48,923 nt of DNA, from NCBI GenBank assembly GCA_946482165.1, contig CAMLQS010000004.1, positions 1 to 48,923 on the forward strand. Direction: 5' to 3'. Shown piece after piece: positions 5,859 to 48,923 of this stretch. Source of the stretch: an uncultured Verrucomicrobiota bacterium. Lineage in GTDB: Bacteria > Verrucomicrobiota > Verrucomicrobiae > Opitutales > Opitutaceae. Each line of letters opens with the position of its first letter. The first letter of the stretch is position 1. The notes beneath the pieces are model-generated. The model saw only the letters and a program-made list of their open reading frames with translations, did no database searches and was not told the origin of the DNA. The translations under genes were made by a program, and so were the position numbers.

Positions 5859-8800
5859 ATGCTGCAAAAAAGCTTCACCGACCTCTTTGTCCGCAAGCCG
5901 GTCATTTCGCTCGTGGTGAACATAGCGATCCTCGTGATCGGCCTTGTCGCCTATTCCCAGCTCAACGTCCGCCAATACCCGCGCAGCGACAGCGCCGTGG
6001 TAAAGGTCACCACCGTCTACTTCGGCGCCAGCGCCGAGACCGTGCGCGGTTACATCACCACCCAGCTCGAGCGGGTCATCGCCAGCGCCGACGGCATCGA
6101 CTATGTCGAGTCCCAGAGCGTCGCCGGGGTGAGCACGATCAGCGTGTATCTGCGGCTTAACTACGACACCAACGCCGCCCTCGCCCAGATAAGCTCCAAG
6201 ATAGACCAGGTCCGCAGCGAGCTCCCGCCCGAGTCGGAGGCGCCGACGATCAGCGTCGAGTCGAGCGACAACCAGTTCGCCTCGATGTATCTCAGCTTCT
6301 ACTCCGACACCCTCGAGCAGAACCAGATCACCGACTACCTCAACCGCGTCGTCCAGCCGCAGATCGCCTCGATCAAGGGCGTGCAGAAGGCCGACGTGCT
6401 CGGCGGTCGCACTTTCGCGATGCGCGTCTGGCTGAAGCCCGACCAGCTCGCCGCCCGCGGCATCGGCGCCGCCGAGGTGCGCCAGGCCCTCGCCGACAAC
6501 AACGCCCTTTCCGCCGTCGGTTCCACCAAGGGCTCGATGATCTCGGTCAGCCTCGTCGCCGACACCGACCTCAAGAACGTCGAGCAGTTCAAGCAGCTCG
6601 TCGTGGCCGAGCGCAACGGCGCCATCGTCCGCCTCGAGGACGTCGCCGAGGTCGTGCTCGGCGCCGAGAGCTACGACGAGGAGGTGCGCTTCGGCGGCCA
6701 GAAGGCGACCTTCATGGGCGTCTGGGTGCTTCCGACCGAGTCGACGGTCGAGGTTATCCAACGCGTCCGCGAGGCCGTCCCCGAGTTGCAGAGCCGCCTG
6801 CCCGCCGGCCTCAACGCGAAGATTGCCTACGACGCCACCGCCTACATCGACGACGCGCTCCATGAGATCGTGAAGACCCTCGTCGAGACCCTGCTGATCG
6901 TCTCGGTTGTCATCTTCCTGTTCATGGGATCCATCCGCTCGGTGCTCATCCCGGTCATCGCGATGCCGCTCTCCCTCATCGGCGCCCTCTTCATCATGCT
7001 GGTGATGGGCTTCACCCTGAACCTCCTCACGCTGCTGGCCATCGTGCTGGCGGTCGGCATCGTGGTCGACGACGCCATCGTCGTGGTCGAGAACGTCGAG
7101 CGCCACGTGCGCGAGGGCAAATCCAGGGTCGACGCCGCCATTCTCGGCGCGCGCGAGCTGGTCGGCCCGGTTATTTCGATGACCATCACGCTCGCCGCCG
7201 TCTACGCCCCGATCGGTCTGCAGGGCGGCCTCACCGGCGCGCTCTTCCGCGAATTCGCCTTCACCCTGGCCGGAGCGGTGATGGTCTCGGGCTTTGTCGC
7301 GCTCACGCTTTCGCCGATGATGAGCTCACGCCTGCTCAAGGATCACGACCATGAGGACGAGGGGCTGAGCGGGCGCATCAACCGCAATTTCGACCGCCTG
7401 CGGAACTTCTACGACCGCCTCATCGGCCACAGCCTTGGCTGGGTGCCGGTCACCATCACCGTGGCCGTTCTGCTCACGCTCCTGCTCGGGCCTTTCTTCA
7501 TGTTCGCGCAGAAGGAACTGGCGCCGAAGGAGGACCAGGGCGTCGTCTTCAGCATCCTGCTGCCTTCGCCCAACGGCACCATCGACCAGAACATGATCTA
7601 TTCCGGGCAGGTGCAGGACATGTTCGAGTCGTTCCCCGAGTATTCGAACTCCTTCCAGATCACGAGCACCTCCTTCGGCTTCGGCGGGGCGATCCTGAAG
7701 CCCTGGTCCGAGCGCGAGCGCACCGCGGAGGAGATCCAGATCTCGCTTCAGGACGACGCCGCGCGGATCGCCGGCCTCAACGTCGTGATGAACACGCCCG
7801 ACCCCTTGCCCTCGGGCGGCCAGTTCCCGATCGAGTTCGTCGTGCGCTCCACCGCGGGCCATCGCCAGATGAACGAGTTCGCCCAGCAGCTTCTCCTCTA
7901 CGCCAACACCGAGGCGAACGATCCCAACGGCATGCCGACCTTCTTCTTCGCCGACGCCGACCTGAAGTTCGATCTTCCGCAGGTGGAGATCGAGATCGAC
8001 AAGGACAAGGTCGCCGCGATGGGCCTCAGCCTGAGCGACATCTCGCGCGACCTCGGCTCGTTGCTCGGCGGCGGCTACGTCAACCGCTTCGTCAACGACG
8101 GACGCAGCTACCGCGTCATCCCGCAGGTGGAGCGCGGCGAGCGTCTCAACGCCGACCAGTTGCTCGATTATCACGTGCGGGGCCCGGACGGACGCCTCAT
8201 TCCTCTCTCGACCATCGCCACGCTGAAGGAGACCGTCGAACCGCGCTCGCTCAACCGCTTCCAGCAGCTCAACGCGGTCAAGATCACCGGCGTCGGCCCT
8301 TCCGTCGACAAGGCCCTCGCCAAGCTCGAGCAGAAGGCGAAGGAGATCCTTCCCCCCGACTACTCCATCGACTACGGCGGCCAGTCGCGCCAACTCCGCC
8401 ACGAAGGCAACGCGCTCTGGAAGGCCGGCGTGCTCGCGCTGCTTCTCATCTTCCTCGTGCTCGCGGCGCAGTTTAACAGCTTCCGCGATCCCTTCATCAT
8501 CCTCCTCGGTTCCGTGCCGCTCGCGCTGTTTGGCGCGATGATCCCGATCTTCCTCTGGGAAACCACGCTCAACATCTACTCCCAGATCGGCCTCATCACG
8601 CTCGTCGGCCTGATCGCCAAGAACGGCATCCTCATCGTCGAGTTCGCAAACACGCTCCAGGAACGGGGCGTGGCGAAGCGCGACGCGATCCGCCAGGCCG
8701 CGGCCACCCGCCTGCGCCCGGTGCTCATGACCTCCGCCGCCACGGTGTTCGGCCATCTGATGCTGATTTTCGTCAGCGGCCCCGGCGCCGCGGCGCGAAA

Positions 8801-35911: not shown

Positions 35912-38900
35912 TCAGGGGAAAGTGAGTTTCAGACGCATGAACGCTTTGCCGCCCACTTCGTCGATGGGCTGGGTGTAGACCCAGGTGCGTTCCTCGAATT
36001 CGCCGAGATCAGCGAGGACGAAACTCGTCGTCGGGATGGAGGATTCGGAGGCGTCCAGACTGTCGAGCGAGGTGGCGGCCTGGGCGAACACCGTCGCGCC
36101 TACTAGGTTTTTGCGCACGATGGCGGTGAGGGTGAGGTAACGCTTGCCCTCGACTGCGGCGGGCCATTCGGAGGCGGTGACGGGACGGACGGCCAAGGCG
36201 GGCTGCGCGGAGGCGTCGGCGGCGAGCGGGGCGGAGCCGAACAGCCACTCAAGGGCGTTCACGCGGCCGTCGCCGTCGGGGTCGTCCGTCTGGCCGTCTT
36301 CGCCGCTGGGGAGCGATTGGGTGGCGAGCCAACCGGCGTAGGCGGCGGTGTCGTATTCGATGGAGAGGATGCCTTGGGCGAGCGTGGAGGTTTTCCAGCG
36401 GAGGCCCTCGGCGAGGGCGGGCAAATCGTAGGCGGCAAAGGCGCCGCCGATGAAACCGGCCTGGAAGAGGGTGAAGCTGTCGCCGGCGGCGAGGGTGCCG
36501 CCGAGATTGGTTACGGAGAGCGTGCCGCCAAGGCTCAGCGTGCCGGAAACGAAGAGCTGATCGCGGGTGGCGGCGCTCTTGTTGATTTCGAAGCGGGCGA
36601 GGGAGCCGGCGGCGAGCGTGGCCGAGCTTTGAGTGGTGAGACGGCCGATACCGGAGGAGGAGCCGGGGGAAAGGGTGCCCTGGACGTTGAGGGCGCCGCC
36701 GAGCGTTCCGGTGCCTCCGAGGGTGCCGGAGGAACCGACCGTGACCTGGCCGGTGGAGGTGGAGCCGGTGACGAGGAGGGTGCCGGCGGAGACCGAGGTC
36801 GGGCCGGTGGCGGTGTTGGCCTGGGTGAGGGTCCAGGTGCCGGCGCCGGTTTTCACGAGGGAGCCGGTGCCGGGGAGAACTTTGTCGAAGATGCCGTTGC
36901 CGACGCCGGCGAGGGTGAGCGTGCCGCCGGAGTCGCTGGCGACGGGGCCGCCGCCGCGGCTGTCGTTTTTGACCGTCCAGGTGTCGTCGGCCTTGGCGGC
37001 CTCGAGCGTGGCGCCGGACGCTCCGATGGTGAAGCCGGGGCCGTAGGGAATCTCGGCGGGGTTGAGGGGGGCGCCGGCCGCGCCGCCGGTGAAGCGGATG
37101 GTGCCGCCGTTGATGACAAAGCGGGCGGGATTGTAGTCCAGACCGCCGAGGGATTGGGTGCGGTAGGTGCCGTTCGGGCCATAGCCCCAGCGGTCGAGCT
37201 CGAGGACGGCGCCGGTGTTGACGGTGAGGATGGCGGCGTTGTTCCAGCCGCCGGCGTAGAGCGCGCCCGTGCCGAGGATGGCGAGGGTGCCGCCGGAGAC
37301 GGTGACGTTGCCGGTGAATGTGTTCGCGGCGGTGAGCGCGAGGCGGCCGGCGCCATTTTTCAGAATGTGCATCGTGGCGCTCCCGTTGGAGACGATGCCG
37401 CCGAGGGTGGTGTTGCCGACGCCCGAGAAGGTGAGCGTGCGATCGCCGGTGAGGGCGGTGCCGATGGCGCCGAGGGTGAGGGTGCCGGCGTCGGAATGAA
37501 AGAAGTAGTTGGAGCCGCCGCTTTGGAGCGCGATGGCGCCGGAGAGGGTGTTGGAGCCGGTGAGGTTGCGGATGGCGGCGACGGAGGAGGTGCGCGCGCT
37601 GAGATTGATGGCGGCCGGGACGACGACGTCGCCCAGGGTGCCATCGAGGACGAGGGTGGAGCTGCCGGCGTTGTTGTTGCGGATGGCGAGGGTGGTGGCG
37701 GAGGCGAGGGCGTTGGGGTGGGCGAGGCGGACGGAGCCCTCGTTGATGCTCGTGTTGCCGGTGTCGATGTTGACGGTGCCGGAGAGGGAGTTTGATCCGG
37801 AAAGCACGAGGGTGCCGACGCCGCTCTTGGAGAAACCATCCGTGCCGGTGAGGGGGGCGGAGATCGTGGCGGTGTTTTGGTTGACGACGATGCGGGGCGC
37901 GGCGGTGGTGCCGGTCAGGGTGAGGGTGGCGCCGCCGCTGGAGTTGAGGGTCCAGTTTTGGAGGCCGGAGGTGTCGCCGAAACGGAGCGTGCCGATGGAG
38001 CGGGAGGTGTTGAGGGTGACGGCGCGGTCGGCGGAGATGTTGAGCGTGCTGAAATCGGCGGCGTAGCCGGCGCCGTTGGCGGGGAAGCCGGAGCTCCACT
38101 TGGCGGTGTCGCTCCAGGTGCCGGAGGCGTCGGTGCTCCAGGTGCCGTTGCCGAGCACGGACGGCAGGGTGACGGTGAATACGACGGAGTCGGTGGCGCC
38201 GGCGGAGTCGGTGACGGTGATGACGAATTCCTGCGCGCCTTCGTCGGAGAAGGTGGGCGTGCCGGAGAGCGCGCCGCCGGCGGCGACGGCGAGCCAGGCG
38301 GGACCGGAGGTCTTGGAGTAGACGAGGGTGTCGCCGACGTCGGCGTCGGTGGCGGCGCCGGCGACGCTGCCTGAGTAGGCGACGCCTTGGGTGCCGTTGC
38401 CTCCATTGATCGTGGCGGTGGCGAACTGCGGCGCGGTGTTGGTTTGAAGCGCGGTGATCTGGGCGGCCGTGAAGGCGGAGTCGGCGATGCGGACCTCGTC
38501 GAGGCGGCCGGCGAAAAGCGGGTCGGCGGCGAACTGGCTCTTGCCGAGGAAATTCAGGTCGGCGGCGAGCTGGGCGGGCGTGATGGAGATCGAGCCGCTG
38601 GCGGCCTGGGCGCCGTTGAGGTAGATGCGGGCGGTGCCGCCGGAGAGGGTGACGGCGACGTGGCTCCACTGGCCGGAGGGCAGGGCGGAGGCGGTTTGCA
38701 CGATTTGCTCGGAGCCGCCGTTGCGGATGGCGAAGCGGAGGGTGCCGGAGCCGGAGCTCGGGGTGAGGAACATGTAGTTCGAGGTGCCGCGGCCGAAGTC
38801 GAAGATGCGCTGCCAGTTCGCGCCGCCGTCCCAGTAGACCCAGGCCGCGAAGCTGAAGGAGGTGGAGGAGGCGAGGTCGGGCGGGAGCTGGACGACGGTG

Positions 38901-40411
38901 TTGGCGCCGTCGAGGCGGAGGGCGGAGCCGCGCTGGCCGGTCGTGTAGGCGGGGCGGCCGACGCCGGTGGCGTTGTTGCCAAAGCCGGAGCTGTCGAGGG
39001 TGTCGCCGTCGAAGGCGAACTGGGCTACGCCGCGGGAGCCGGTTTTCGGAATGCGCTGGGCGTAGCTGAGCGGCGAGGCGTTGGCCTTGTAGCTCACTCC
39101 GGCGGGGGTGAGGCCGCCTTCGTCGTAGGTCATCTGGCGGACGCCCTCGACGCGGCTGTAGACGGCGTAGCGCTCGATGAAGGGCGCGTTGTCCATCATG
39201 TCGGTGAACTCGGCGATGCGGGTGGCGTTCTGCTCGTAGGTCGGATCGGCGCAGGTGGTCCAGTTGGCGCCGTTGTTGAACTCGGTGAGCCAGATGGGGC
39301 GGCCGGTGCGGACGTGGATGTCGTAGAGCCAGTTGTAGAGCTGGGTGGCGGTGTAGCCGCAGCGATAGAAGTGGATGGCGACGTAGTCGACGCGGAGGTC
39401 GGCGGCGTCGGCTTTGTCGATGAAGCTGTAGAGCCAGTTGACGCCGCCGTCGGTGACGGCGGGGGAGCCGACGCGGAGGCCGGAGGCGAGGAGTTCGGGC
39501 CAGACGGCGATGGCGGTGTCGACGTCGCCGTTGTTGAGGGAGGTGTAGGCGTCCTCGACGGGATTGTCGGGCTCGTTGAAGCCGAGCAGGTGGGTGGAGC
39601 CGGGCTGATTGGTCGGGTAGCCGGGCCACCAGCGTTGCTGACGAATGGGAACGTATTCCCAGTCGAGGGGGGAGCTCTGGTCGTTGTTCCAGTTGTAGAA
39701 CCAGGAGGAGTCGAGGGTGGCGGCGGAGACGTCGCAGGAGCCTTTTTTGGAGACCCAGCGCCAAGGGAGCACGCGCACGAAGCGGATGGCGTTGTTCAGC
39801 TCGGCGGGGAGGCGGCCGATCTCGAGATCGCCGTCCTGGGCGACGTAGATGCGGCTCGGGCCGGAGCCGTTGGTCTGGGTCGAGAACGTGGCCATGTAGC
39901 CGCGCTTGAGCTTGAAGGAGCTGATGGCGCGGTTGAGCGAGCCGAGGGTGGCGGCACTGTTGTAATAAGTGTATTGGCTATACGAGGCGGAGGTGCCGGT
40001 GAAGTCGGGGCCGCTGAAGGCCTGAAGCGGCTGGAAGCTGGACGCGTGCGGAATGACGACGGCGCCGAGTTCGTATTGGACGACGCGGACGTTGGTGCCG
40101 GAGACGGCGGCGGCGCCGTTGACGCGGAGCTGCGAGAGGTAGGTGGAGACGACGACCGACGGCTTGACGGAGGTGAACAGGACCCAGGCGTCGGGGGAGG
40201 TGAGATTTACGGTGGAGCCGGAGAGCGGGGTGGTCGAGGTGAGGCGGAGCTCCGACTTGCCGCTGAGCGTGACGGTGGCGCCCGACAGCGAAGCGTAGGT
40301 TTGCACGCCCTCGGTGATCGTTTGCGCGAGCGCCGACCGCGGGATTGATGCGACCGCCAGAAGGAAAACGGAAAGGGCGACGAGGCGGGAGAAGAGTCGG
40401 AACGGGGGCAT
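35912..40411 (-). CDS. Large secreted Asl1/GH128-like glucanase with LamG and autotransporter-associated beta-strand repeats
   Basis: 1499 residues. Signal peptide 1-29 (ending RSALAQ). Residues ~200-455 form a TIM-barrel-like domain of the Asl1/GH128 type, with the acid/base candidate Glu 280 in LLGFNEPDNP, YVAIHFYRCGY, and nucleophile candidate Glu 377 in IWLTEFN. Residues ~462-655 are a LamG/concanavalin-like domain. A ~95-residue cadherin-like module follows (APQF...GDTLVYSKTSGPAWLAV). From ~755 to ~1330 run autotransporter-associated beta-strand repeats (GTWSTDASGTWSD..., FSKSGVGTLVLSGSNSLSGTVNI, KTGAGTWTLTQANTATGPTSV). No autotransporter barrel follows; instead a DDPDGDGRVNALEWLFGSAP module and a ~110-residue tail end in FMRLKLTFP. 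Likely an extracellular beta-1,3-glucan-active enzyme held at the surface; substrate is inferred. Confidence 0.85.
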   Translation of the reverse strand: MPPFRLFSRLVALSVFLLAVASIPRSALAQTITEGVQTYASLSGATVTLSGKSELRLTSTTPLSGSTVNLTSPDAWVLFTSVKPSVVVSTYLSQLRVNGAAAVSGTNVRVVQYELGAVVIPHASSFQPLQAFSGPDFTGTSASYSQYTYYNSAATLGSLNRAISSFKLKRGYMATFSTQTNGSGPSRIYVAQDGDLEIGRLPAELNNAIRFVRVLPWRWVSKKGSCDVSAATLDSSWFYNWNNDQSSPLDWEYVPIRQQRWWPGYPTNQPGSTHLLGFNEPDNPVEDAYTSLNNGDVDTAIAVWPELLASGLRVGSPAVTDGGVNWLYSFIDKADAADLRVDYVAIHFYRCGYTATQLYNWLYDIHVRTGRPIWLTEFNNGANWTTCADPTYEQNATRIAEFTDMMDNAPFIERYAVYSRVEGVRQMTYDEGGLTPAGVSYKANASPLSYAQRIPKTGSRGVAQFAFDGDTLDSSGFGNNATGVGRPAYTTGQRGSALRLDGANTVVQLPPDLASSTSFSFAAWVYWDGGANWQRIFDFGRGTSNYMFLTPSSGSGTLRFAIRNGGSEQIVQTASALPSGQWSHVAVTLSGGTARIYLNGAQAASGSISITPAQLAADLNFLGKSQFAADPLFAGRLDEVRIADSAFTAAQITALQTNTAPQFATATINGGNGTQGVAYSGSVAGAATDADVGDTLVYSKTSGPAWLAVAAGGALSGTPTFSDEGAQEFVITVTDSAGATDSVVFTVTLPSVLGNGTWSTDASGTWSDTAKWSSGFPANGAGYAADFSTLNISADRAVTLNTSRSIGTLRFGDTSGLQNWTLNSSGGATLTLTGTTAAPRIVVNQNTATISAPLTGTDGFSKSGVGTLVLSGSNSLSGTVNIDTGNTSINEGSVRLAHPNALASATTLAIRNNNAGSSTLVLDGTLGDVVVPAAINLSARTSSVAAIRNLTGSNTLSGAIALQSGGSNYFFHSDAGTLTLGAIGTALTGDRTLTFSGVGNTTLGGIVSNGSATMHILKNGAGRLALTAANTFTGNVTVSGGTLAILGTGALYAGGWNNAAILTVNTGAVLELDRWGYGPNGTYRTQSLGGLDYNPARFVINGGTIRFTGGAAGAPLNPAEIPYGPGFTIGASGATLEAAKADDTWTVKNDSRGGGPVASDSGGTLTLAGVGNGIFDKVLPGTGSLVKTGAGTWTLTQANTATGPTSVSAGTLLVTGSTSTGQVTVGSSGTLGGTGTLGGALNVQGTLSPGSSSGIGRLTTQSSATLAAGSLARFEINKSAATRDQLFVSGTLSLGGTLSVTNLGGTLAAGDSFTLFQAGFIGGAFAAYDLPALAEGLRWKTSTLAQGILSIEYDTAAYAGWLATQSLPSGEDGQTDDPDGDGRVNALEWLFGSAPLAADASAQPALAVRPVTASEWPAAVEGKRYLTLTAIVRKNLVGATVFAQAATSLDSLDASESSIPTTSFVLADLGEFEERTWVYTQPIDEVGGKAFMRLKLTFP

Positions 40412-40529: not shown

Positions 40530-43500
40530 TCAGGGCAAATCGACTTGGAGCCGGAAAAAGTGGCGACCGCGGCTTCCGTCGAAGGGGAGCTGCAACGTAA
40601 CCCAGCCATCCACGTTGAGATCTACGGCGGACGCAATCAGCAGCGAGCTGAAATCCGCGTCCTCGCGGTTGTTCCAGAGCGAGTCCCATTGGAGAAGATC
40701 GTCGCTTTCCCAGACGCTGTAACCCGCGTCCAGCGCCTGGGCCGAGCGATGGAAACTGAACTCCGCGAGGCCGGTCGAGCCGAGCGCGAGCGTGGTGAGC
40801 GCGGCGGGGGCGGCCGACGCGGAAGCAGGGGAGCCTCCGGCGGCGTATTCAAGGGCGTTCGGCACGCCGTCGCGATCGGGATCGGCGGCGGGCGCCGAAT
40901 CGGGGGCGTTTACGCCGCCGACGAAGTGTGCCGCGGACCACGCTGCGTAACTGTGAAATGGATACGCGCGGGAGGCGGTGGCGTCGATCTCGATGAAACA
41001 GATCTTGTTGCGGTAGGCGCCGGGGCCGTTGGTCAAGGTGAGGCGGCCGTCGGCGACGAGGACGCGGGCGCGTTGGTCGATGAAGCGGCGGCCGGAGCCC
41101 TGGGCGTTGCCCTGCGTTACGGTGACCCCCTCGGCGAGGACGTGGTAATAGCTGTCGGTGTAGTCGGGGTCGCCGCAGACGAGGCGCACGTCGTAGCTGC
41201 CGTTGGGCACGGAGATTTCCCAGGTGTGGGTCTCGGTGGGCGGGTTGTTATACTGCATCTGGTTGAGCGTGTCGTAACGCTCGTCGGAGGAGTTGACGCT
41301 GTTGCGATCACGCGTGAGCCCGGTGTTGGCGCCCTCGATCCATCCGTAGGTCCGGCCGTTGCCGCGGTCGCCGTAGACGGCGCCGGTGTCGGGAAGGTAG
41401 CCGGGATAGCCGGCGGACGTGGAGGTTTGGAAATTGATCTTCGCCGAGAACGGGGTGGCGAACTCGGTCGCGGCGGCGTTGCCCGCGGCGGTCGCGGGCG
41501 CGCCGATCCAGGCGAAGGTGCCGAGGTCGGCGGCGGATTGAACGGTCGCAGGCAGGGGCGCGCGGGCGAGGAGCTGGCGTTCGGCCTGGCCGGCGGGCTT
41601 CACCCAGAGATCGAAGCGGCGCTCCATGAAGTCGACGAGGAGACGGATGCGGTGGGCGACGCCGGGGACGTAGGACAACTCGACCAGGCCCGGCCCAGGC
41701 GAGGGCGTGACGCGGCCGTCATCGGCAAAGTGCAAGGACACCGCGAGCGAGCCTGCCTCGCTCACGCCCGCGCCGGCGAAACCGGCCAACAGCATGCCCG
41801 AGGGGACGGACGGCGGGGTGAACTCCACCGTGGTTTCGAAACGTCGGCCGGAGACGGGCAGGGCGAGGTGATTCCAGAAGCCGGCGAAGGCGCCGAGCTG
41901 GACCGGCGTGTGCGGGGCGAGGGCGATCTCGCGCCCGGCGTGGGTGAAACGCGCGAAGCGGTCGACCTCGACGGCGGTGACGACGCCGTCGGAGAGCTGG
42001 AGAACGAAGGCGCAGCTCTGCTCGAAGGCGACGTCGTTGGCCCCGTCGCCGTCGAGATCGACGCCGGTGCCGACGCCGCCCGCGGACGTGCGGCCGACAT
42101 AGGTGTCGCCGCGAATGCGCCCGAGGACGGAGGAGAAATCGGCGCCGTCGCGAACCAAGCTCGCACGCACGGACTCGGCGGAGGGATCGGCGGCTTTGCG
42201 CGGGTAGACGAAAGTCGAGACCGCGGCGCCGGCGTTGGTGACGCGCAGCGGGCGCTGGTCGCCGTAGGCGGAGCGGCGAAGGGCGGCGGAGGCGTCGATG
42301 ACCGGAGAGGCGCCAAGTGCGATGAAGGTTTGCTGGTCGGGCTCGGCTTGAGCGGAGTCGGCGGGGAATACGCGCAACTCGTCAATGTTCAGGCCCGAGC
42401 CGTCGGAGGCCTCGAGGCGGACGGTGTTGGCGGCGCCGGCGAGGAGGGTGACCGGCACGTGGAGCTGGTGCCAATAGAGGGGGAAGTTGAGCACGCCGCC
42501 GCCGTAGGTGCTGGCGTTGCCGGTGTGGACGAAGCGGATCGTGCGCGCCTCGCCGTTGACGCGGAGCGTGACGGTGCGCGAGGCGCCGGTGGACTGGGGC
42601 AGCGTGTAGCGGAAGCCGATGGTGGCGGAGCCGCCGTCGCCGCCGGGGAGGCCGCTCCACTCGATGGCGCCGGATGTGGCGGGGAGGCCGACGTGGCCGG
42701 AGCCGCTGAAGCCGGGCAGGGCGCTCGCGACGGAGGCGCCGCCGGAGAGCGCGGCGGACTCGGCCTCGAAGACGAGACGGGCGGCGGATTGTTTCGGATA
42801 GGAGGTGGAGGCGATGTGCGTGCCGACGTGGGCGTCGAGGACGTGTTTGCCGTCGAACTCCATGAGAGGCCAGACGACGCCGAAGTCCTCGGTGCCGGCG
42901 TTGCGGACGGTGTCGACGAGGACGCCGTCGGGCGTGATCACGAGATTGAGCGCGAAGCCCGGGCCGGTCTGGCCGGCCTTGGGCGTGAGCGCGAGCGTGC
43001 CGCGAACGAGGAGCGGGTGGACGAAGCTCGGGGTGAAGACGCCCGCGTAGCGGTCGGGGAGTTCGGAGAGCGTTTTCCAGGCGCCGTTTTCGAAGAAGGT
43101 CGGGGTGAAGCTGATGGCCTGGCTCCAATCGGCGGCGGTCCAGCCGTCGGCGGGGCCGAGGCGGGATTCCCAGTCGGGGCGGCTGAAGCGGACGATGCCG
43201 AGGGTGAAGCTGTTGACGCCGGCCTGGCGGTCGTTGGCGGTCTGGCTGGAGCCGCGGGTGCAGAGCTGCACCTGCATGCCGCCGGCGTTGGCGAAGGAGG
43301 TGGCGAACTGGGAATCCAGGTTGAAGGCGAAGCCGCCGATCTCGGCGGGCGTGGGTTGCTCGGGAATGGCGGTGAGGCGGGTGGCGAAGGCCTCGGCGCT
43401 GTGAATCTCGGTGTAGCCGTTGTAGTTGGTGAGCGCGCTCCAGTCGTAGTAGACGTTTTTGTGGGAGGGCGGGAGGAGGCTCTTGGTGACGGAAAACCAG

Positions 43501-44681
43501 CCCTGCTCCTGCTGAAAGCGCCAGGCGCTTTGGAAGGCGAGGCGGGCGGCGCGGCGGAACTGGCCGGCGAGACGTTTGTCGCCGGCTGTCCAAGTGAGCT
43601 CGGCCATCTGCTCGTAGGCGTTGCCGTAGACGACGTCGTTCCAGATGTGGTTGCCGGTGCGGCCGGCGGCGGGGGCGTCGCCGTTGCCCGACATGGTGAG
43701 CAGGGAGCTGCGGGCGGCGAAGCCGATCGTATCGAAGATGTCGTTACGCGAGGGGCCGTCGTAGCCGTGGACGATCAGGTCGAGCAGATTGCCGGTGGCG
43801 CCGCCGTGGTAGGCGAAGTTTTGCCGGCCGTTTGTATCGTCGTCGTGATACATCAGGTAATGCGGCTCGAGGAAAAACTGGTCCCGGTCGCGGGAGTAGC
43901 GGGCGCGCTGCTCGTTGTTCCAATACCACTCGATGAAGCTCACGCCCTGATAGCTGCCGGAGCCGGTGCCGGCGGCGCGGGGAACGAGGCCGTCCCGCAC
44001 GCGGAGCCACTCGCCCTTCATGGCGTAGGTGCGCCAGTTTTGGCCGACGCCGTTGTTCATGTAGGCGACGCGCGAAGTGGACAGGCGCGATTCCCAGCGG
44101 GCAATGCGGGCGGTGGCGAGAATGGCGGGATGTTGCGGCGCGATCTGTTTGAACAGGCGCAGAGCCTTCATCATCGGAGCGCCGAAGAATTCGCCGTGAT
44201 TGTCGTTGGCCTTGGCGGAGCCGTCGAGGCCGGAGATGTCGGCGGTGGCGTGGTCGAGGGCGCGGGCGCCGGATTCGAGCAGAGAGACGGCGCGGCCTTC
44301 GGAGACGGCGGTGGCGACGGCGAAGGCGTAGTAGGGCGTGGCGTATTGGTGTTCGCGGAGATTGAAGGGGTCGATGATCGAGCCGTTTTGCACGTCGCCC
44401 CCGTCCTGGACGTCGCCGGGGTCGGACGTGTTCCAGTATTGGAGAGGCGCGAGGGCGGTGATGATGGCCTCCACCTTGTCGAGCGGGTCGGTGCGCGGAG
44501 TGTCGAGCGGCGTCCACGGGCGGGCGGAGATATGCCACTTGAGCTCGGGCAGGGTGTCGGGTTGTCCGCTTTGCGCCTGGGCCGCGGAGACGGGGGCCAG
44601 GAGGCCAAGCGCGAGCGAAACGACCGGAGGCAAGCGACGGACAAGCTGAATGGACGGACGAGGAGGGGTGGAGGTAGTCAT
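40530..44681 (-). CDS. Large secreted multi-domain protein, likely carbohydrate-active, catalytic family not recognised
   Basis: 1383 residues. Signal peptide 1-36 (ending VSAAQA). Residues ~45-430 are helical with aromatic and His/Glu/Asn-rich stretches (NDNHGEFFGAPMMKA, LEPHYLMYHDDDTNGRQNFAYHGG, TGNHIWNDVVYGNAYEQMAEL), resembling an alpha/alpha-toroid lyase or hydrolase. Residues ~445-635 look like a beta-sandwich. ~636-773 is a CBM6/35-type domain (starting VFEAESAAL, ending NIDELRVFP). ~900-1065 looks LamG-like. ~1076-1235 is malectin-like (KINFQTSTS... TWEISVPNGSYDVRLVCGDPD... ICFIEIDA). Residues ~1240-1383 are the same kind of C-terminal module as in the neighbouring 1499-residue protein (DPDRDGVPNALEYAAGGSP), ending FFRLQVDLP. 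It lies 118 bp upstream of that gene in the direction of transcription. Confidence 0.8.
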   Translation of the reverse strand: MTTSTPPRPSIQLVRRLPPVVSLALGLLAPVSAAQAQSGQPDTLPELKWHISARPWTPLDTPRTDPLDKVEAIITALAPLQYWNTSDPGDVQDGGDVQNGSIIDPFNLREHQYATPYYAFAVATAVSEGRAVSLLESGARALDHATADISGLDGSAKANDNHGEFFGAPMMKALRLFKQIAPQHPAILATARIARWESRLSTSRVAYMNNGVGQNWRTYAMKGEWLRVRDGLVPRAAGTGSGSYQGVSFIEWYWNNEQRARYSRDRDQFFLEPHYLMYHDDDTNGRQNFAYHGGATGNLLDLIVHGYDGPSRNDIFDTIGFAARSSLLTMSGNGDAPAAGRTGNHIWNDVVYGNAYEQMAELTWTAGDKRLAGQFRRAARLAFQSAWRFQQEQGWFSVTKSLLPPSHKNVYYDWSALTNYNGYTEIHSAEAFATRLTAIPEQPTPAEIGGFAFNLDSQFATSFANAGGMQVQLCTRGSSQTANDRQAGVNSFTLGIVRFSRPDWESRLGPADGWTAADWSQAISFTPTFFENGAWKTLSELPDRYAGVFTPSFVHPLLVRGTLALTPKAGQTGPGFALNLVITPDGVLVDTVRNAGTEDFGVVWPLMEFDGKHVLDAHVGTHIASTSYPKQSAARLVFEAESAALSGGASVASALPGFSGSGHVGLPATSGAIEWSGLPGGDGGSATIGFRYTLPQSTGASRTVTLRVNGEARTIRFVHTGNASTYGGGVLNFPLYWHQLHVPVTLLAGAANTVRLEASDGSGLNIDELRVFPADSAQAEPDQQTFIALGASPVIDASAALRRSAYGDQRPLRVTNAGAAVSTFVYPRKAADPSAESVRASLVRDGADFSSVLGRIRGDTYVGRTSAGGVGTGVDLDGDGANDVAFEQSCAFVLQLSDGVVTAVEVDRFARFTHAGREIALAPHTPVQLGAFAGFWNHLALPVSGRRFETTVEFTPPSVPSGMLLAGFAGAGVSEAGSLAVSLHFADDGRVTPSPGPGLVELSYVPGVAHRIRLLVDFMERRFDLWVKPAGQAERQLLARAPLPATVQSAADLGTFAWIGAPATAAGNAAATEFATPFSAKINFQTSTSAGYPGYLPDTGAVYGDRGNGRTYGWIEGANTGLTRDRNSVNSSDERYDTLNQMQYNNPPTETHTWEISVPNGSYDVRLVCGDPDYTDSYYHVLAEGVTVTQGNAQGSGRRFIDQRARVLVADGRLTLTNGPGAYRNKICFIEIDATASRAYPFHSYAAWSAAHFVGGVNAPDSAPAADPDRDGVPNALEYAAGGSPASASAAPAALTTLALGSTGLAEFSFHRSAQALDAGYSVWESDDLLQWDSLWNNREDADFSSLLIASAVDLNVDGWVTLQLPFDGSRGRHFFRLQVDLP

Positions 44682-44811
44682 GACGAGGCGGGCATCCCGG
44701 GGGCGAGGACAAGACGGCGCTCGTTGCCGATCCGTCTCAAGGGGCGGCGCGGTTTAACGTCCATCGTGGGCTCGCCGCTGCGCTGGTAAGAAAACTCGAG
44801 ACCGGAAAGCA

Positions 44812-44871: not shown

Positions 44872-47301
44872 TTACTTGGCGAGTTCGAGGCCGTAGGGCT
44901 TGTCGGAGAGGTAGACGCGGTAGGACTTGATGCGGCCGGGGCGGGAGTTGTCGCCGGAGCGGGCGAGGTAGCGGATGCCGTCGATGCGGGTGGTCTCGCC
45001 GAGGTCGATGACGACGCGGTGCGGGTAGGGCGTGGTCTTGTTGTTCGCGTAGGCGGTGTGCCAATGGGTGTTGGGCTGGCCGTCGAGCATGTTGTCGGCG
45101 TAGCCGGCCTCGGATGCGACCTCCTCGCTGTCGACCCAGAGGATCTTCCAGCCGGCTTTGGAGAGGACCTTGCCGGCTGCGTCCGTGGCATCGAGTTCGC
45201 TGATCGTGGCGTGGGTGTTGCCTCCGTGGGCCTCGAGGGCTTCGAAGGCGAGGTAACGGCCCGATGCGGAGTGGGCGAACTTGACGGTCTGCCACTCGGG
45301 CTCGGGGCGGAGCTGCCCGGAGTGCGCGGCGATGACGCCTTCTGCGCTGAACTCGCCCTTGGCGCGGGCGGGGCGGGCGAAGTCGAGCTCGGGTCGGAGC
45401 ACGTCGAGGATGGGCTTGGCGAGACCGGCGAGCTCGGGCTTGGCGGGGCCGATCATGTCGAGGACGACGACCTCGTTGCGGCCGGCGCGGAGCCAGGGGG
45501 CGGGCACATACATGGTCTGCTGCGGACCGATGTTCCAGAAGCGGCCGAGGTTGTGGCCGTTGATCCAGACCATGCCTTTGCCGAGGTTGCGGACGTCGAG
45601 GAAGCTGTCGGCGGCCTCCGCGATCTCGAAGGAGCCGCGCCAGAAGCTAGGGCCGGTGGTGGCCTTGGCCGCGTCCTTGTCGGCGGGGGCGAAGCGGAGC
45701 GCGGCGAGATTTTCGGCGTCGAGCTCGAAGGGGTGGATCTTCCAGTCGCGGACTTCGACGGGGCCTGCGGGGCCTTCGGCGTCGAAGCGGACGGGACCGT
45801 TGATGCCCTTGCGGTCGAAGACCTCTTTGCCGAAGTTCACGCGGCCCATGATCTCGACGACGATCTCGAGGCGGGTCTCGGAGCTGCGGGCGGGGATGGG
45901 GAGCTCGTAGCGGCGGGACCGGCGGTCGAAGACGCCGGCGGGTTTGCCGTCGAGGAAGACCCAGCCGAAGTCATGCACGGCGCGGGCCGAGAGCGTGCCG
46001 GCGGGGCCGGCGGGCAGCGTGGTCGAGTAGACGGTGAGGCCGCGGCTCTGGTCGTAGGCCTCGATGTGGCGCGCGGAGGTGTCCGTGACCGGTTTGGTGA
46101 GGTTGGCCAGGACCGGGGCGGTCTCGGTGAGCGTGAAGCTCGGGAGCGTGATCACCGGGTTGGCGGCGGGCGGGGGCGGGATGGATTCGCCAGGCTGTAG
46201 GTATTTGGCGAATACGTCGCGGATCGCCTCGAACTTGGGCGTGACCCAGCCGGCCTCGCTGATCGGGGCGTCGTAGTCGTAGCTGGAGGTGTCGGGAAGG
46301 AAGGGGCGGTCGGAGCCGGGCCAGAAGCCGAAGGTGGTGCCGCCGTGGGCCATGTAGATGCTGAACGAGTGCTTGTTCTTCAGCATGTAATCGAGGTCGG
46401 CGGCGATGGGCTCGGGGGAGCCGGTGGCGTGCTTGCGACCCCAGACGTCGAACCAGGCGGGGTAATACTCGCCGTTCATGAGCGGGCCGGTCTTCTGGAA
46501 TTTGCGCAGGGTCTCGAAGGATTTCTTCGCGGCGCCCTGGCCGAAGTTGACCACTTGGAAAATGTCGTCGCGGAAGCCGTTGGCGATGGCGCCGGCGGGA
46601 TTGCAGGCGAAGAGGGGAACGTCGAAGCCGCCCTCGACCAAGGCGTCGCGGAGGGCGCCCATGTAGACGGGATCGTCGCCGTAGGAGCCGTATTCGTTTT
46701 CGACCTGCACCATGAGGAGCGGGCCGCCCTTGGTGACCTGTTGCGGGCCGAGGACGCGGCCGACTTCCTTGAGGAAGCGGGATGCGGGCTCGAGGAAGCG
46801 CGGGTCGGTGGTGCGGAGGCCGATGTTATCGTGCTTCACGAGCCACCAGGGCAGGCCGCCCATTTCCCACTCGGCGCAGGAGTAGGGGCCGGGGCGAAGG
46901 ATGACCCAGAGGCCTTCGGCTTGGGCGAGGCGGCAGAACTCCGCGACGTCGGCTTGGCCGGACCAGTCGAATTTACCCTCTTCCCATTCGTGGAAATTCC
47001 AGAAGAGATACACGCAAACGGTGTTGAGGCCCATCGCCTTGCACATCTGGAGGCGGTGTTTCCAGTATTCTCGCGGGACGCGGGGGAAGTGGATCTCGCC
47101 GCAGCGGATGACGAAGGGCTGGCCATCGAGGAGGAAATCCTCGTCGCCGATGGTGAAGGTATGCTTGGGCATGGAGGCGGAAGCGGAGGCGGCGGAAGCA
47201 GCGGGGGCGGTTTCGGCAAACGACACCGAGGCGAGGCCGAGGGCGGAGCCGAAGAGGCCGAGAAGCAGACTCGATCGTAAGCGGGTGCTGAGCAGGGGCA
47301 T
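44872..47301 (-). CDS. GH35 beta-galactosidase with C-terminal discoidin-type domain
   Basis: 809 residues from ATG 47301 (MPLLSTRLRSSLLLGLFGSALGL); a longer start would precede the signal peptide. Signal peptide to ~29 (SVSFAE). The TIM-barrel GH35 catalytic domain covers ~47-370: LLDGQPFVIRCGEIHFPRVPREYW, RPGPYSCAEWEMGGLPWWL, acid/base Glu 203 in VQVENEYGSYG and nucleophile Glu 278 in LMNGEYYPAWFD. Jelly-roll domains follow (FVWINGHNLGRFWNIGPQQTMYVPAPWL-type). The last ~130 residues are an F5/8 type C (CBM32-like) module. It removes terminal beta-galactose from oligo- or polysaccharides, probably in the periplasm or outside. It lies 70 bp after the GH43 gene and ends at a terminator. Confidence 0.95.
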   Translation of the reverse strand: MPLLSTRLRSSLLLGLFGSALGLASVSFAETAPAASAASASASMPKHTFTIGDEDFLLDGQPFVIRCGEIHFPRVPREYWKHRLQMCKAMGLNTVCVYLFWNFHEWEEGKFDWSGQADVAEFCRLAQAEGLWVILRPGPYSCAEWEMGGLPWWLVKHDNIGLRTTDPRFLEPASRFLKEVGRVLGPQQVTKGGPLLMVQVENEYGSYGDDPVYMGALRDALVEGGFDVPLFACNPAGAIANGFRDDIFQVVNFGQGAAKKSFETLRKFQKTGPLMNGEYYPAWFDVWGRKHATGSPEPIAADLDYMLKNKHSFSIYMAHGGTTFGFWPGSDRPFLPDTSSYDYDAPISEAGWVTPKFEAIRDVFAKYLQPGESIPPPPAANPVITLPSFTLTETAPVLANLTKPVTDTSARHIEAYDQSRGLTVYSTTLPAGPAGTLSARAVHDFGWVFLDGKPAGVFDRRSRRYELPIPARSSETRLEIVVEIMGRVNFGKEVFDRKGINGPVRFDAEGPAGPVEVRDWKIHPFELDAENLAALRFAPADKDAAKATTGPSFWRGSFEIAEAADSFLDVRNLGKGMVWINGHNLGRFWNIGPQQTMYVPAPWLRAGRNEVVVLDMIGPAKPELAGLAKPILDVLRPELDFARPARAKGEFSAEGVIAAHSGQLRPEPEWQTVKFAHSASGRYLAFEALEAHGGNTHATISELDATDAAGKVLSKAGWKILWVDSEEVASEAGYADNMLDGQPNTHWHTAYANNKTTPYPHRVVIDLGETTRIDGIRYLARSGDNSRPGRIKSYRVYLSDKPYGLELAK

Positions 47302-47371
47302 GGTGTGGTGTGGGTGATGTGGTGAAAAAACGGGACGAAGGAAACCGTGAGCGAGGCGGCGCGCCGGGGGA

Positions 47372-48923
47372 TCAAGGACGACCGCGTCCGTTGGCAAGCG
47401 GTTCCCCGATGTCTCCGGGAGGGAAGGCCGGCTGCATGGGGTCCATCGGGAGGATGTTGCCTTGCGCGTCGAAGTTCATGCGGACGAGGACGGTCTCTCG
47501 CTTGTAACCGCCGCCGCCGGGGATGGCATGGCGATGGTAGGCGACATACCAGCGGTCGGTGCCGGGGACGTTGACGACGCTGTGGTGGGCGGTGCCCTTG
47601 GCGGAGCCATTTTGGCGGAGCACGATGAAGTTTTCCTTCGGCGAGGCGACCGGGCCGAAGGGCTTGTCGGCGACGCCCCAGCCGACGCGATAGTCGGGGC
47701 TGCGCGCGTCGTCGATGGACCACATAAAATAGTAGCGGCCGGCGCGTTTGAATACGATGACGCCCTCGCGGAATTCGCGAAGGGCAATCTCCACCGGCTC
47801 GCCGGAGAACGAGATCATGTCTCGGTTCAGGCGCCAGGCGGTGGGGGTGCCGTTGCCGAAGTAAAGGTAGGCCTGGCCGTCGTCGTCGATGAAAGCGTGG
47901 GGATCGATGCTGAAGGTCTTGATTTTCGAATCCTCGACGAGAGGACGGCCGAGGGCCTCGCGGAAGGGGCCGACGGGCGAGTCGCCGACGGCGACCCCGA
48001 TGTTGTGCTCTCCGCAGAAGTAGAAGTAGTAGCGGCCGTCGCGCTCGATGCAGTCGGGAGCCCAGGCTTTGTTCTTCGCCCAGGAAACGTCTCCGCGGGC
48101 GAGATCGAGGATGACCTTGTCCTTTTTCCACGAGACGAGGTCGGGCGACGACCAGACGGCGAACTCGGTCGTATTCCAGAACGGGCGGTCTGCCGTGGGG
48201 TAGATATAATAGCGGTCGCCGAAGACGCGGATCGCCGGGTCGGCGGTGTAGCCGGGAAGGGCGGGGGTAGGGGCGCCGGCCTGCGCGACGGATTGGAGCC
48301 GGAGTTGTTCGGCCAAGGTCGCGGGAACGGCGACGACGGAGCCGTGGCGTTGGCCGGAAGCGGCCGAAAGGTTGGGGGTCAGGTCAGTCCACTTGAGGCC
48401 GTCGAGTGTTTCGCGGACTCGGTGGCGGGATTTGCCTTGGGCGCCGAAAAAGACGCGAAGACGGTCGCCGAGCACGAGGGGGGCGGGGCCTTCGGGGCGG
48501 TCGCCGGAGACAAGCGGCTCACGGCGGGGTTCGTAGGGGCCCAGAAGCCGGGGCGAGCTGGCGACGCGGAGAGCGCCCGTGCGGCCGTTCTCGACCGCTT
48601 CGGTGGTGGTATAGAAGAGCTGGTATTGACCATCCGCATAGACGAGGGACGGGTCGGCCGCGTCGAGGTTGATGTCGAGGAGAGTGCGCGGGGTGGTGAA
48701 GCGTTTGAAATCGCGGGTGAGCGAATAATAGATGCGTGACCGATCACGGGTCTCGCCGGCGGCGCGGACCACGCCGGACCACACCAGCGCGTATTCGCCG
48801 GTGTCGGGACGAATTGCGACAATCGACGCCAGGTACAAATTGTCGTTGGCTTTGGGATTGCGAACCGTGCCGCTCCACGGCAAGCCGTTGCCGGTGCCGA
48901 AGTAGAGCAAATCGAGTTCGGGG
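47372..48923 (-). CDS. Tandem-domain GH43 glycosidase, 5' end outside window
   Basis: The reading frame is open to the window edge, so the N-terminus (probably a signal peptide) is missing; about 516 codons are seen. The first visible ~210 residues look like a GH43-type propeller ([13 protein letters not shown]... [21 protein letters not shown]... [20 protein letters not shown]). A second, complete GH43 propeller begins near visible residue 218: base Asp 224 in [19 protein letters not shown], pKa-setting Asp 336 in [19 protein letters not shown], and acid Glu 372 in [24 protein letters not shown]43 enzymes act on arabinan, xylan or galactan side chains. It is the first visible gene of a GH43-GH35 unit. 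Confidence 0.9.

What the first reader, a model, noticed from the sequence alone, without database searches (positions are those of the whole stretch)
40530..44681. 1383-residue secreted protein may be a founding member of a new polysaccharide-active family
The N-terminal ~600 residues combine a helical region with conserved-looking His/Glu/Asn/Tyr clusters (NDNHGEFFGAPMMKA, HYLMYHDDDTN, TGNHIWNDVVYGNAYEQ) and a following beta-sandwich, the architecture of alpha/alpha-toroid polysaccharide lyases and some hydrolases. I recognise no catalogued family signature. CBM6/35-like, LamG-like and malectin-like modules follow, and GH35, GH43 and an Asl1-like glucanase are neighbours. This is the best candidate in the window for an undescribed enzyme.
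Basis: partly seen in the sequence, partly recalled or inferred. Interest (0 to 1): 0.75.

Follow-up and report, generated by a model that had tools for sequence, protein, structure and literature searches.

The report
Probable new polysaccharide lyase family
A large secreted bacterial protein belongs to a widespread, unnamed protein family that is predicted to be built like known acidic-polysaccharide-cutting enzymes (lyases) and to carry a similar set of conserved residues, but the activity has not been measured.

Summary
The 1383-codon ORF at 44681..40530 is real and lies on the minus strand. Its N-terminal module has no Pfam or NCBIfam match and no solved relative by sequence. It is not alone: hundreds of candidate homologues exist (120 best inspected per search), and 44 loci from at least six phyla were fetched. 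AlphaFold2 (pLDDT 94) gives an (alpha/alpha) toroid plus a long antiparallel beta-sandwich. With an insert-free family member as query, Foldseek's first 44 PDB chains (35 entries) are all polysaccharide lyases. Near-invariant residues (Asn215-Trp216, Tyr278, Arg341-x3-His345, Tyr420) resemble the active sites of PL40 ulvan lyase and GH154 uronate dehydratases in order and spacing. A few fused or adjacent GH88/105 and heparinase-like enzymes fit. Best reading: an undescribed lyase family for a uronic-acid glycan. Substrate and activity are unknown, and dbCAN/CAZy could not be searched.

The parts
40530..44681 (-). whole ORF, 1383 aa (P0002)
   Evidence: homologues
44571..44681 (-). probable signal peptide, residues 1-37
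   Evidence: read by eye; not tested with a predictor
43362..44549 (-). (alpha/alpha)6-like toroid, residues ~45-440
   Evidence: AF2 (12 toroid helices counted from DSSP, one short helix left out); fold matches
42786..43361 (-). antiparallel beta-sandwich, first part, residues 441-632
   Evidence: AF2; two-domain matches
42354..42782 (-). CBM35 inserted in the beta-sandwich, residues 634-776
41904..42350 (-). antiparallel beta-sandwich, second part, residues 778-926
   Evidence: found in 301 of 301 full-length members; alignment; AF2
40533..41894 (-). C-terminal modules of unassigned family, residues 930-1383
   Evidence: no Pfam match in three pieces
44034..44039 (-). Asn215-Trp216, proposed carboxylate-neutralising pair at the start of inner helix 6
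   Evidence: 301/301 and 300/301; same pair in PL40 Uly1040 and GH154/BcGDH; role inferred
43848..43850 (-). Tyr278, proposed catalytic Tyr (proton shuttle)
   Evidence: 300/301; 63 residues after Asn215, vs 60 in PL40, 53 in PL33, 52 in GH154; role inferred
43647..43661 (-). Arg341-x3-His345 at the start of inner helix 10
   Evidence: 301/301 and 300/301; compare Arg285-x3-Tyr289 of BcGDH
43422..43424 (-). Tyr420, first turn of inner helix 12
   Evidence: 301/301; compare Tyr354 of BcGDH
44872..47397 (-). neighbour: GH35 beta-galactosidase-like
35912..40411 (-). neighbour: PF11790 (GH128/Asl1-like) + LamG + PATR repeats
47372..48910 (-). neighbour: GH43, cut by or chimeric near the window end

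Best explanation
The protein is a secreted multimodular enzyme of an undescribed polysaccharide lyase family. The catalytic module (residues ~45-632 plus 778-926) is an (alpha/alpha) toroid joined to an antiparallel beta-sandwich, with the active cleft at the helix starts that line one rim of the toroid. It is proposed to bind a uronic-acid-containing glycan so that Asn215 (with Trp216) neutralises the C6 carboxylate of the +1 uronate, and Tyr278, kept reactive by Arg341 and/or His345, takes the C5 proton and/or protonates the leaving oxygen. This is beta-elimination, leaving a 4,5-unsaturated uronate that GH88/105 enzymes then remove. The nested CBM35 probably targets the enzyme to uronic acids. 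Shown by computation: fold, conservation, module nesting, fusions. Inferred: the reaction, the role of each residue, the substrate.
Confidence: 0.58

Rival explanations
1. Uronate dehydratase: like GH154 (BcGDH) or P29_PDnc it removes water from a saturated non-reducing-end uronate, priming it for GH88/105, instead of cutting a glycosidic bond.
For: E110 / N215-W216 / Y278 / R341 / Y420 follow the order and near spacing of E74, N177-W178, Y229, R285, Y354 of BcGDH; a GH88/105 fusion fits a dehydratase equally well.
Against: The crystallised BcGDH is a toroid-only tetramer, whereas 301 of 301 members here have the second domain seen in cleaving lyases, though another GH154, BT3677, is described as having a second domain too; BcGDH Tyr289 is His here and Arg78, Asn176 are not matched; no PF10022 match. 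P29_PDnc was not compared by sequence.
Confidence: 0.18
2. Glycoside hydrolase of a toroid clan using conserved acids (D104, E110, D280, D349) on a neutral or acidic glycan.
Against: Foldseek's first 44 chains for the insert-free model are lyases; the Asn-Trp/Tyr/Arg-x3-His pattern is lyase-like.
Confidence: 0.15
3. C5 uronate epimerase of the dermatan-sulfate-epimerase type: same fold and Tyr/His chemistry but no chain cleavage.
Against: Found in CBM-bearing, apparently secreted proteins, some beside degradative enzymes or fused to GH88/105, which acts on unsaturated products.
Confidence: 0.05
4. It is already a numbered CAZy family not represented in Pfam, NCBIfam, PDB or the open papers searched.
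For: dbCAN/CAZy was not searchable; families such as PL41 and PL44, named in a passage, were not compared.
Against: Of 263 protein ids listed over three searches most carry no name and the names seen are of the 'hypothetical', 'discoidin', 'malectin', 'CBM35/CBM6', 'Ig-like', 'T9SS/Por secretion' type; no such family in the listings or passages seen.
Confidence: 0.2

Closest known systems
PL40 ulvan lyase (Uly1040, 9vtk)
   Same: Toroid + antiparallel beta-sheet architecture (Foldseek rank 35, E 2.3e-6); Asn-Trp carboxylate pair; catalytic Tyr about 60 residues later.
   Different: PL40's Asp358/His485/His487/Mn tetrad has no evident counterpart; no PL core chain found in PDB profile searches.
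GH154 / uronate dehydratases (PF10022, BcGDH)
   Different: BcGDH lacks the large second domain; Tyr289 replaced by His345; Arg78 and Asn176 unmatched; no PF10022 match; hhalign probability 1-2%.
PL8 (chondroitin AC, hyaluronate, xanthan lyases)
   Same: Best Foldseek E-value (2wda, 3.3e-10); toroid + beta-sandwich.
   Different: No Pfam Lyase_8 match; the His nine residues before the catalytic Tyr (recalled) is not conserved here.
PL12/PL15/PL17/PL33/PL35/PL39 and DS-epimerase
   Same: Two-domain fold; Asn...Tyr pair (PL33 N238/Y291).
   Different: Their beta-domain His (PL33 H444) not found at the matching place; no Hepar_II_III or Alginate_lyase match.
CBM35 of Xyn30D and 2w47 (solved with uronic acids)

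Membership tests
PL8 | match to Pfam Lyase_8 models | tested here: not met
   no match at E<=10; hhalign 1.1%
PL8 | toroid + beta-sandwich fold | tested here: met
   2wda rank 1, E 3.3e-10, TM 0.42-0.43
PL8 | His nine residues before catalytic Tyr (recalled) | tested here: not met
   no polar residue at >=95% identity between 261 and 278, if Tyr278 is the catalytic Tyr
PL40 | Asn-Trp carboxylate pair and Tyr acid in the toroid | tested here: inconclusive
   N215 301/301, W216 300/301, Y278 300/301 agree by order and spacing; not superposed
PL40 | catalytic His and metal-binding His near the start of the beta-domain | tested here: not met
   no His conserved at 95% between 441 and 554
PL40 | sequence similarity to Uly1040 | tested here: inconclusive
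   no PL core chain found by profile; whether 9vtk is in that sequence copy was not checked
GH154 (PF10022) | match to PF10022 | tested here: not met
   hhalign 1-2%
GH154 (PF10022) | ten active-site residues of BcGDH (E74 R78 N176 N177 W178 F181 Y229 R285 Y289 Y354) | tested here: inconclusive
   six matched by order and spacing (E, N-W, Y, R, Y); Tyr289 is His; Arg78 and Asn176 unmatched; F181 not examined
PL12/15/17/21/33/35/39 | Hepar_II_III or Alginate_lyase Pfam match | tested here: not met
   hhalign under 1%
PL12/15/17/21/33/35/39 | two-domain toroid + beta-sandwich | tested here: met
Polysaccharide lyase (as a class) | beta-elimination yielding unsaturated uronate | not testable with these tools
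   needs an assay
Any CAZy family | dbCAN HMM match | not testable with these tools
CBM35 (residues 634-776) | sequence and fold match to solved CBM35s | tested here: met

The most novel reading that the evidence does not exclude
A new, unnumbered polysaccharide lyase family, widespread in Verrucomicrobiota, Bacteroidota, Acidobacteriota, Hydrogenedentota and other phyla, that runs its chemistry from the toroid alone (Asn-Trp, Tyr, Arg-x3-His, Tyr) without the beta-domain His of its relatives. It would link the toroid GH154 uronate dehydratases to the two-domain lyases, and would have a beta-sandwich loop into which CBMs have been inserted.
Probability: 0.43. Interest if true: 0.65.

Novelty: new variant of a known kind. 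Interest (0 to 1): 0.5.

Why it matters
Many apparently secreted bacterial proteins of this family are unnamed or called 'hypothetical'. If they form one lyase family, the uronic-acid degrading capacity of these groups (Verrucomicrobiota and Bacteroidota especially) is undercounted, a new tool enzyme may exist for an acidic glycan, and the order of residues gives a concrete test of how toroid dehydratases and two-domain lyases are related.

Tried and rejected
Sequence-level kinship with known toroid families: hhalign of the family core and toroid against profiles built here for PF10022, PF07940, PF02278, PF07470, PF07944, PF07221 and PF05426 (7-15 sequences each, from ten genomes; one PF10022 and one PF07940 candidate dropped as unlike the rest) gave at most 12.5% probability; unproven. 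Tyr291 as catalytic residue: rejected, it is Val in 153 of 301. PL8-type NNWW as counterpart of Asn215-Trp216: dropped, because in the PL8 row examined it lies 109-110 residues before the conserved Tyr, not about 60. Arabinogalactan or galactan as substrate: no direct evidence; tblastn of the window's GH35, GH43 and GH128-like proteins against the 44 loci found nothing at 1e-8, the 86%-identical relative L001 included. Single origin of the CBM insertion: a first measure put all detected inserts in one clade, but it had missed inserts; the corrected count is 79 of 301, with 7 changes on a FastTree of 176 representatives, so a single origin is not claimed. Viral carriage: 7 stretches of viral contigs matched a pattern, none encodes a relative. 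Foldseek against viral structures gave nothing informative. Pooled Pfam scans of the neighbours were diffuse; 150 of 183 listed neighbours were given, and only the first 25 families of each table were visible. The terminator-like stem between GH35 and this ORF is no better than chance (3 found in the region, 2.7 expected).
Full report
What is there. The minus strand encodes a 1383-residue protein from 44681 to 40530. The plus strand is also open for 1414 codons in this 67% G+C window, so openness is no argument. The minus-strand protein is real because close relatives exist: P0003 (100%, possibly the same organism) and eight further proteins at 78-93% identity over residues 30-640 head a list of 139, of which 120 were shown.

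Family searches. Pfam gives one sub-threshold CBM_35 match and NCBIfam nothing; residues 30-640 alone give nothing. Profiles of the family (88 and 68 rows) against PDB sequences at E<=10 hit CBM32-type modules of other proteins through the C-terminal columns of the alignments (and, huntingtin at 0.94), never the core. The family is large: 139 proteins at E<=1e-3, 349 at E<=10 with a profile, and 496 at E<=1 with a distant query. Each time the candidates were capped near 8000 and only the best 120 were shown, so the weaker ones were not inspected. Most of the 263 ids listed carry no name; names seen are of the 'hypothetical' or 'discoidin/malectin/CBM domain-containing' type. A genome scan found 44 loci. 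By labels that I assigned from record titles, 23 are Bacteroidota/Rhodothermota, 8 Verrucomicrobiota, 5 Acidobacteriota, 5 Hydrogenedentota, 1 Planctomycetota, 1 Pseudomonadota and 1 unknown. No relative was found in viral contigs.

Active site. Among 301 full-length rows (306 found; L018, L037, L041, L042 and L044 dropped for coverage under 80%) N215, R341 and Y420 never vary; W216, Y278, D280 and H345 vary once each. The rows are 262 protein ids and 39 locus ORFs, 289 distinct; thinned below 95% identity, 282 rows give the same picture. From the secondary structure (my reading), E110, H162, N215-W216, R341-x3-H345 and Y420 stand within five residues before, or in the first turn of, the even-numbered helices, and Y278/D280 in the loop before helix 8: one rim of the toroid. 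Three published systems give yardsticks. PL40 Uly1040: Asn245-Trp246 neutralise the carboxylate, Tyr305 is the acid, Trp246 is occasionally His (abstract and passages of PMC12915356); in this family Trp216 is His in one row. PL33: Asn238, Tyr291, His444 (sections of PMC11848413). BcGDH of GH154: Ala mutants of E74, R78, N176, N177, W178, F181, Y229, R285, Y289 and Y354 showed no activity (section of PMC12269599; the authors caution that the substrate is poor). A DUF2264 alignment made here shows E89, R93, N192, W193, Y244, R300, Y304 and Y369 invariant in 7 of 7, eight of those ten shifted by 15, which identifies PF10022 with GH154 (N176's counterpart is not invariant there and F was not scored). 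The Asn-to-Tyr distance is 63 here, 60 in PL40, 53 in PL33, 52 in GH154; Glu-to-Asn is 105 here and 103 in GH154; the residue four after the Arg is His here and Tyr in GH154. Arg78 and Asn176 of BcGDH have no counterpart here. This is agreement of order and spacing; I could not superpose coordinates, and profile alignments do not show kinship.

Context. P0038 fuses a GH88/105 domain (PF07470, 3.5e-68, residues 49-352) to this module; P0090, P0080 and P0088 share a C-terminal domain that matches PF07470 weakly in the first two (9e-9, and 3e-5 under the cut-off), and that my own GH88/105 profile did not recover. In L003 and L004 a GH88/105 gene ends 20-21 bases before the family ORF, and in L003 two BNR_4 proteins precede it. 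In 6 of the 7 Cyclobacterium loci the upstream gene is adjacent or overlaps slightly (from a 26-base overlap to a 27-base gap) and encodes a 1313-1317-residue protein hit by the heparinase profile; in L019 Pfam finds Alginate_lyase, beta-helix and Hepar_II_III_N/C in it. PL8, GH154, GH127 and PF05426-type profiles hit no neighbour ORF of the 44 loci at 1e-3 and the epimerase profile one, in L040. Sulfatase matches occur in 4 of 150 neighbours given to pooled scans. Elsewhere the neighbours look unrelated, so context helps only in part. In the window the cluster is GH128-like, this protein, GH35 (closest solved relative 6eon) and GH43; none of these three has a relative in the 44 loci at 1e-8.

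Conclusion. The best reading is a lyase family for a uronic-acid glycan (0.58), with dehydratase, hydrolase and epimerase as rivals. The listings and passages seen in the paper searches describe no such family; that library is open-access only and no CAZy HMM library was available, so prior numbering cannot be excluded.

Noticed in passing
window ~48787-48923 (minus strand, start of ORF 47372-48910): The first ~45 residues of the GH43 ORF match quinohemoprotein alcohol dehydrogenases (1kb0, 1e-11), with GH43 matches starting near residue 203-223, suggesting a chimeric join or assembly error at the window end.
   Followed up: partly
window 40545-44789, plus strand: A 1414-codon open frame lies antisense to the gene, as expected from high G+C; no Pfam match.
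   Followed up: partly
L019, L022, L023, L024, L026, L036 (Cyclobacterium), upstream gene: A 1313-1317-residue protein; in L019 it joins an Alginate_lyase match, a beta-helix and Hepar_II_III_N/C in one chain: an unusual double-lyase protein beside the family gene.
   Followed up: partly
P0090, P0088, P0080 residues ~881-1246: A C-terminal domain with only weak PF07470 similarity (9e-9 in P0090), possibly a divergent GH88/105-like toroid fused to the family module.
   Followed up: partly
L013:12157-13977 and L005:7581-9242: Neighbouring proteins of 606 and 553 residues without any Pfam match at 1e-5.
   Followed up: no
family core, between residues 632 and 778: 11 of the 79 members with an insert here carry one without detectable similarity to this CBM35, so the loop may accept different modules.
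   Followed up: no
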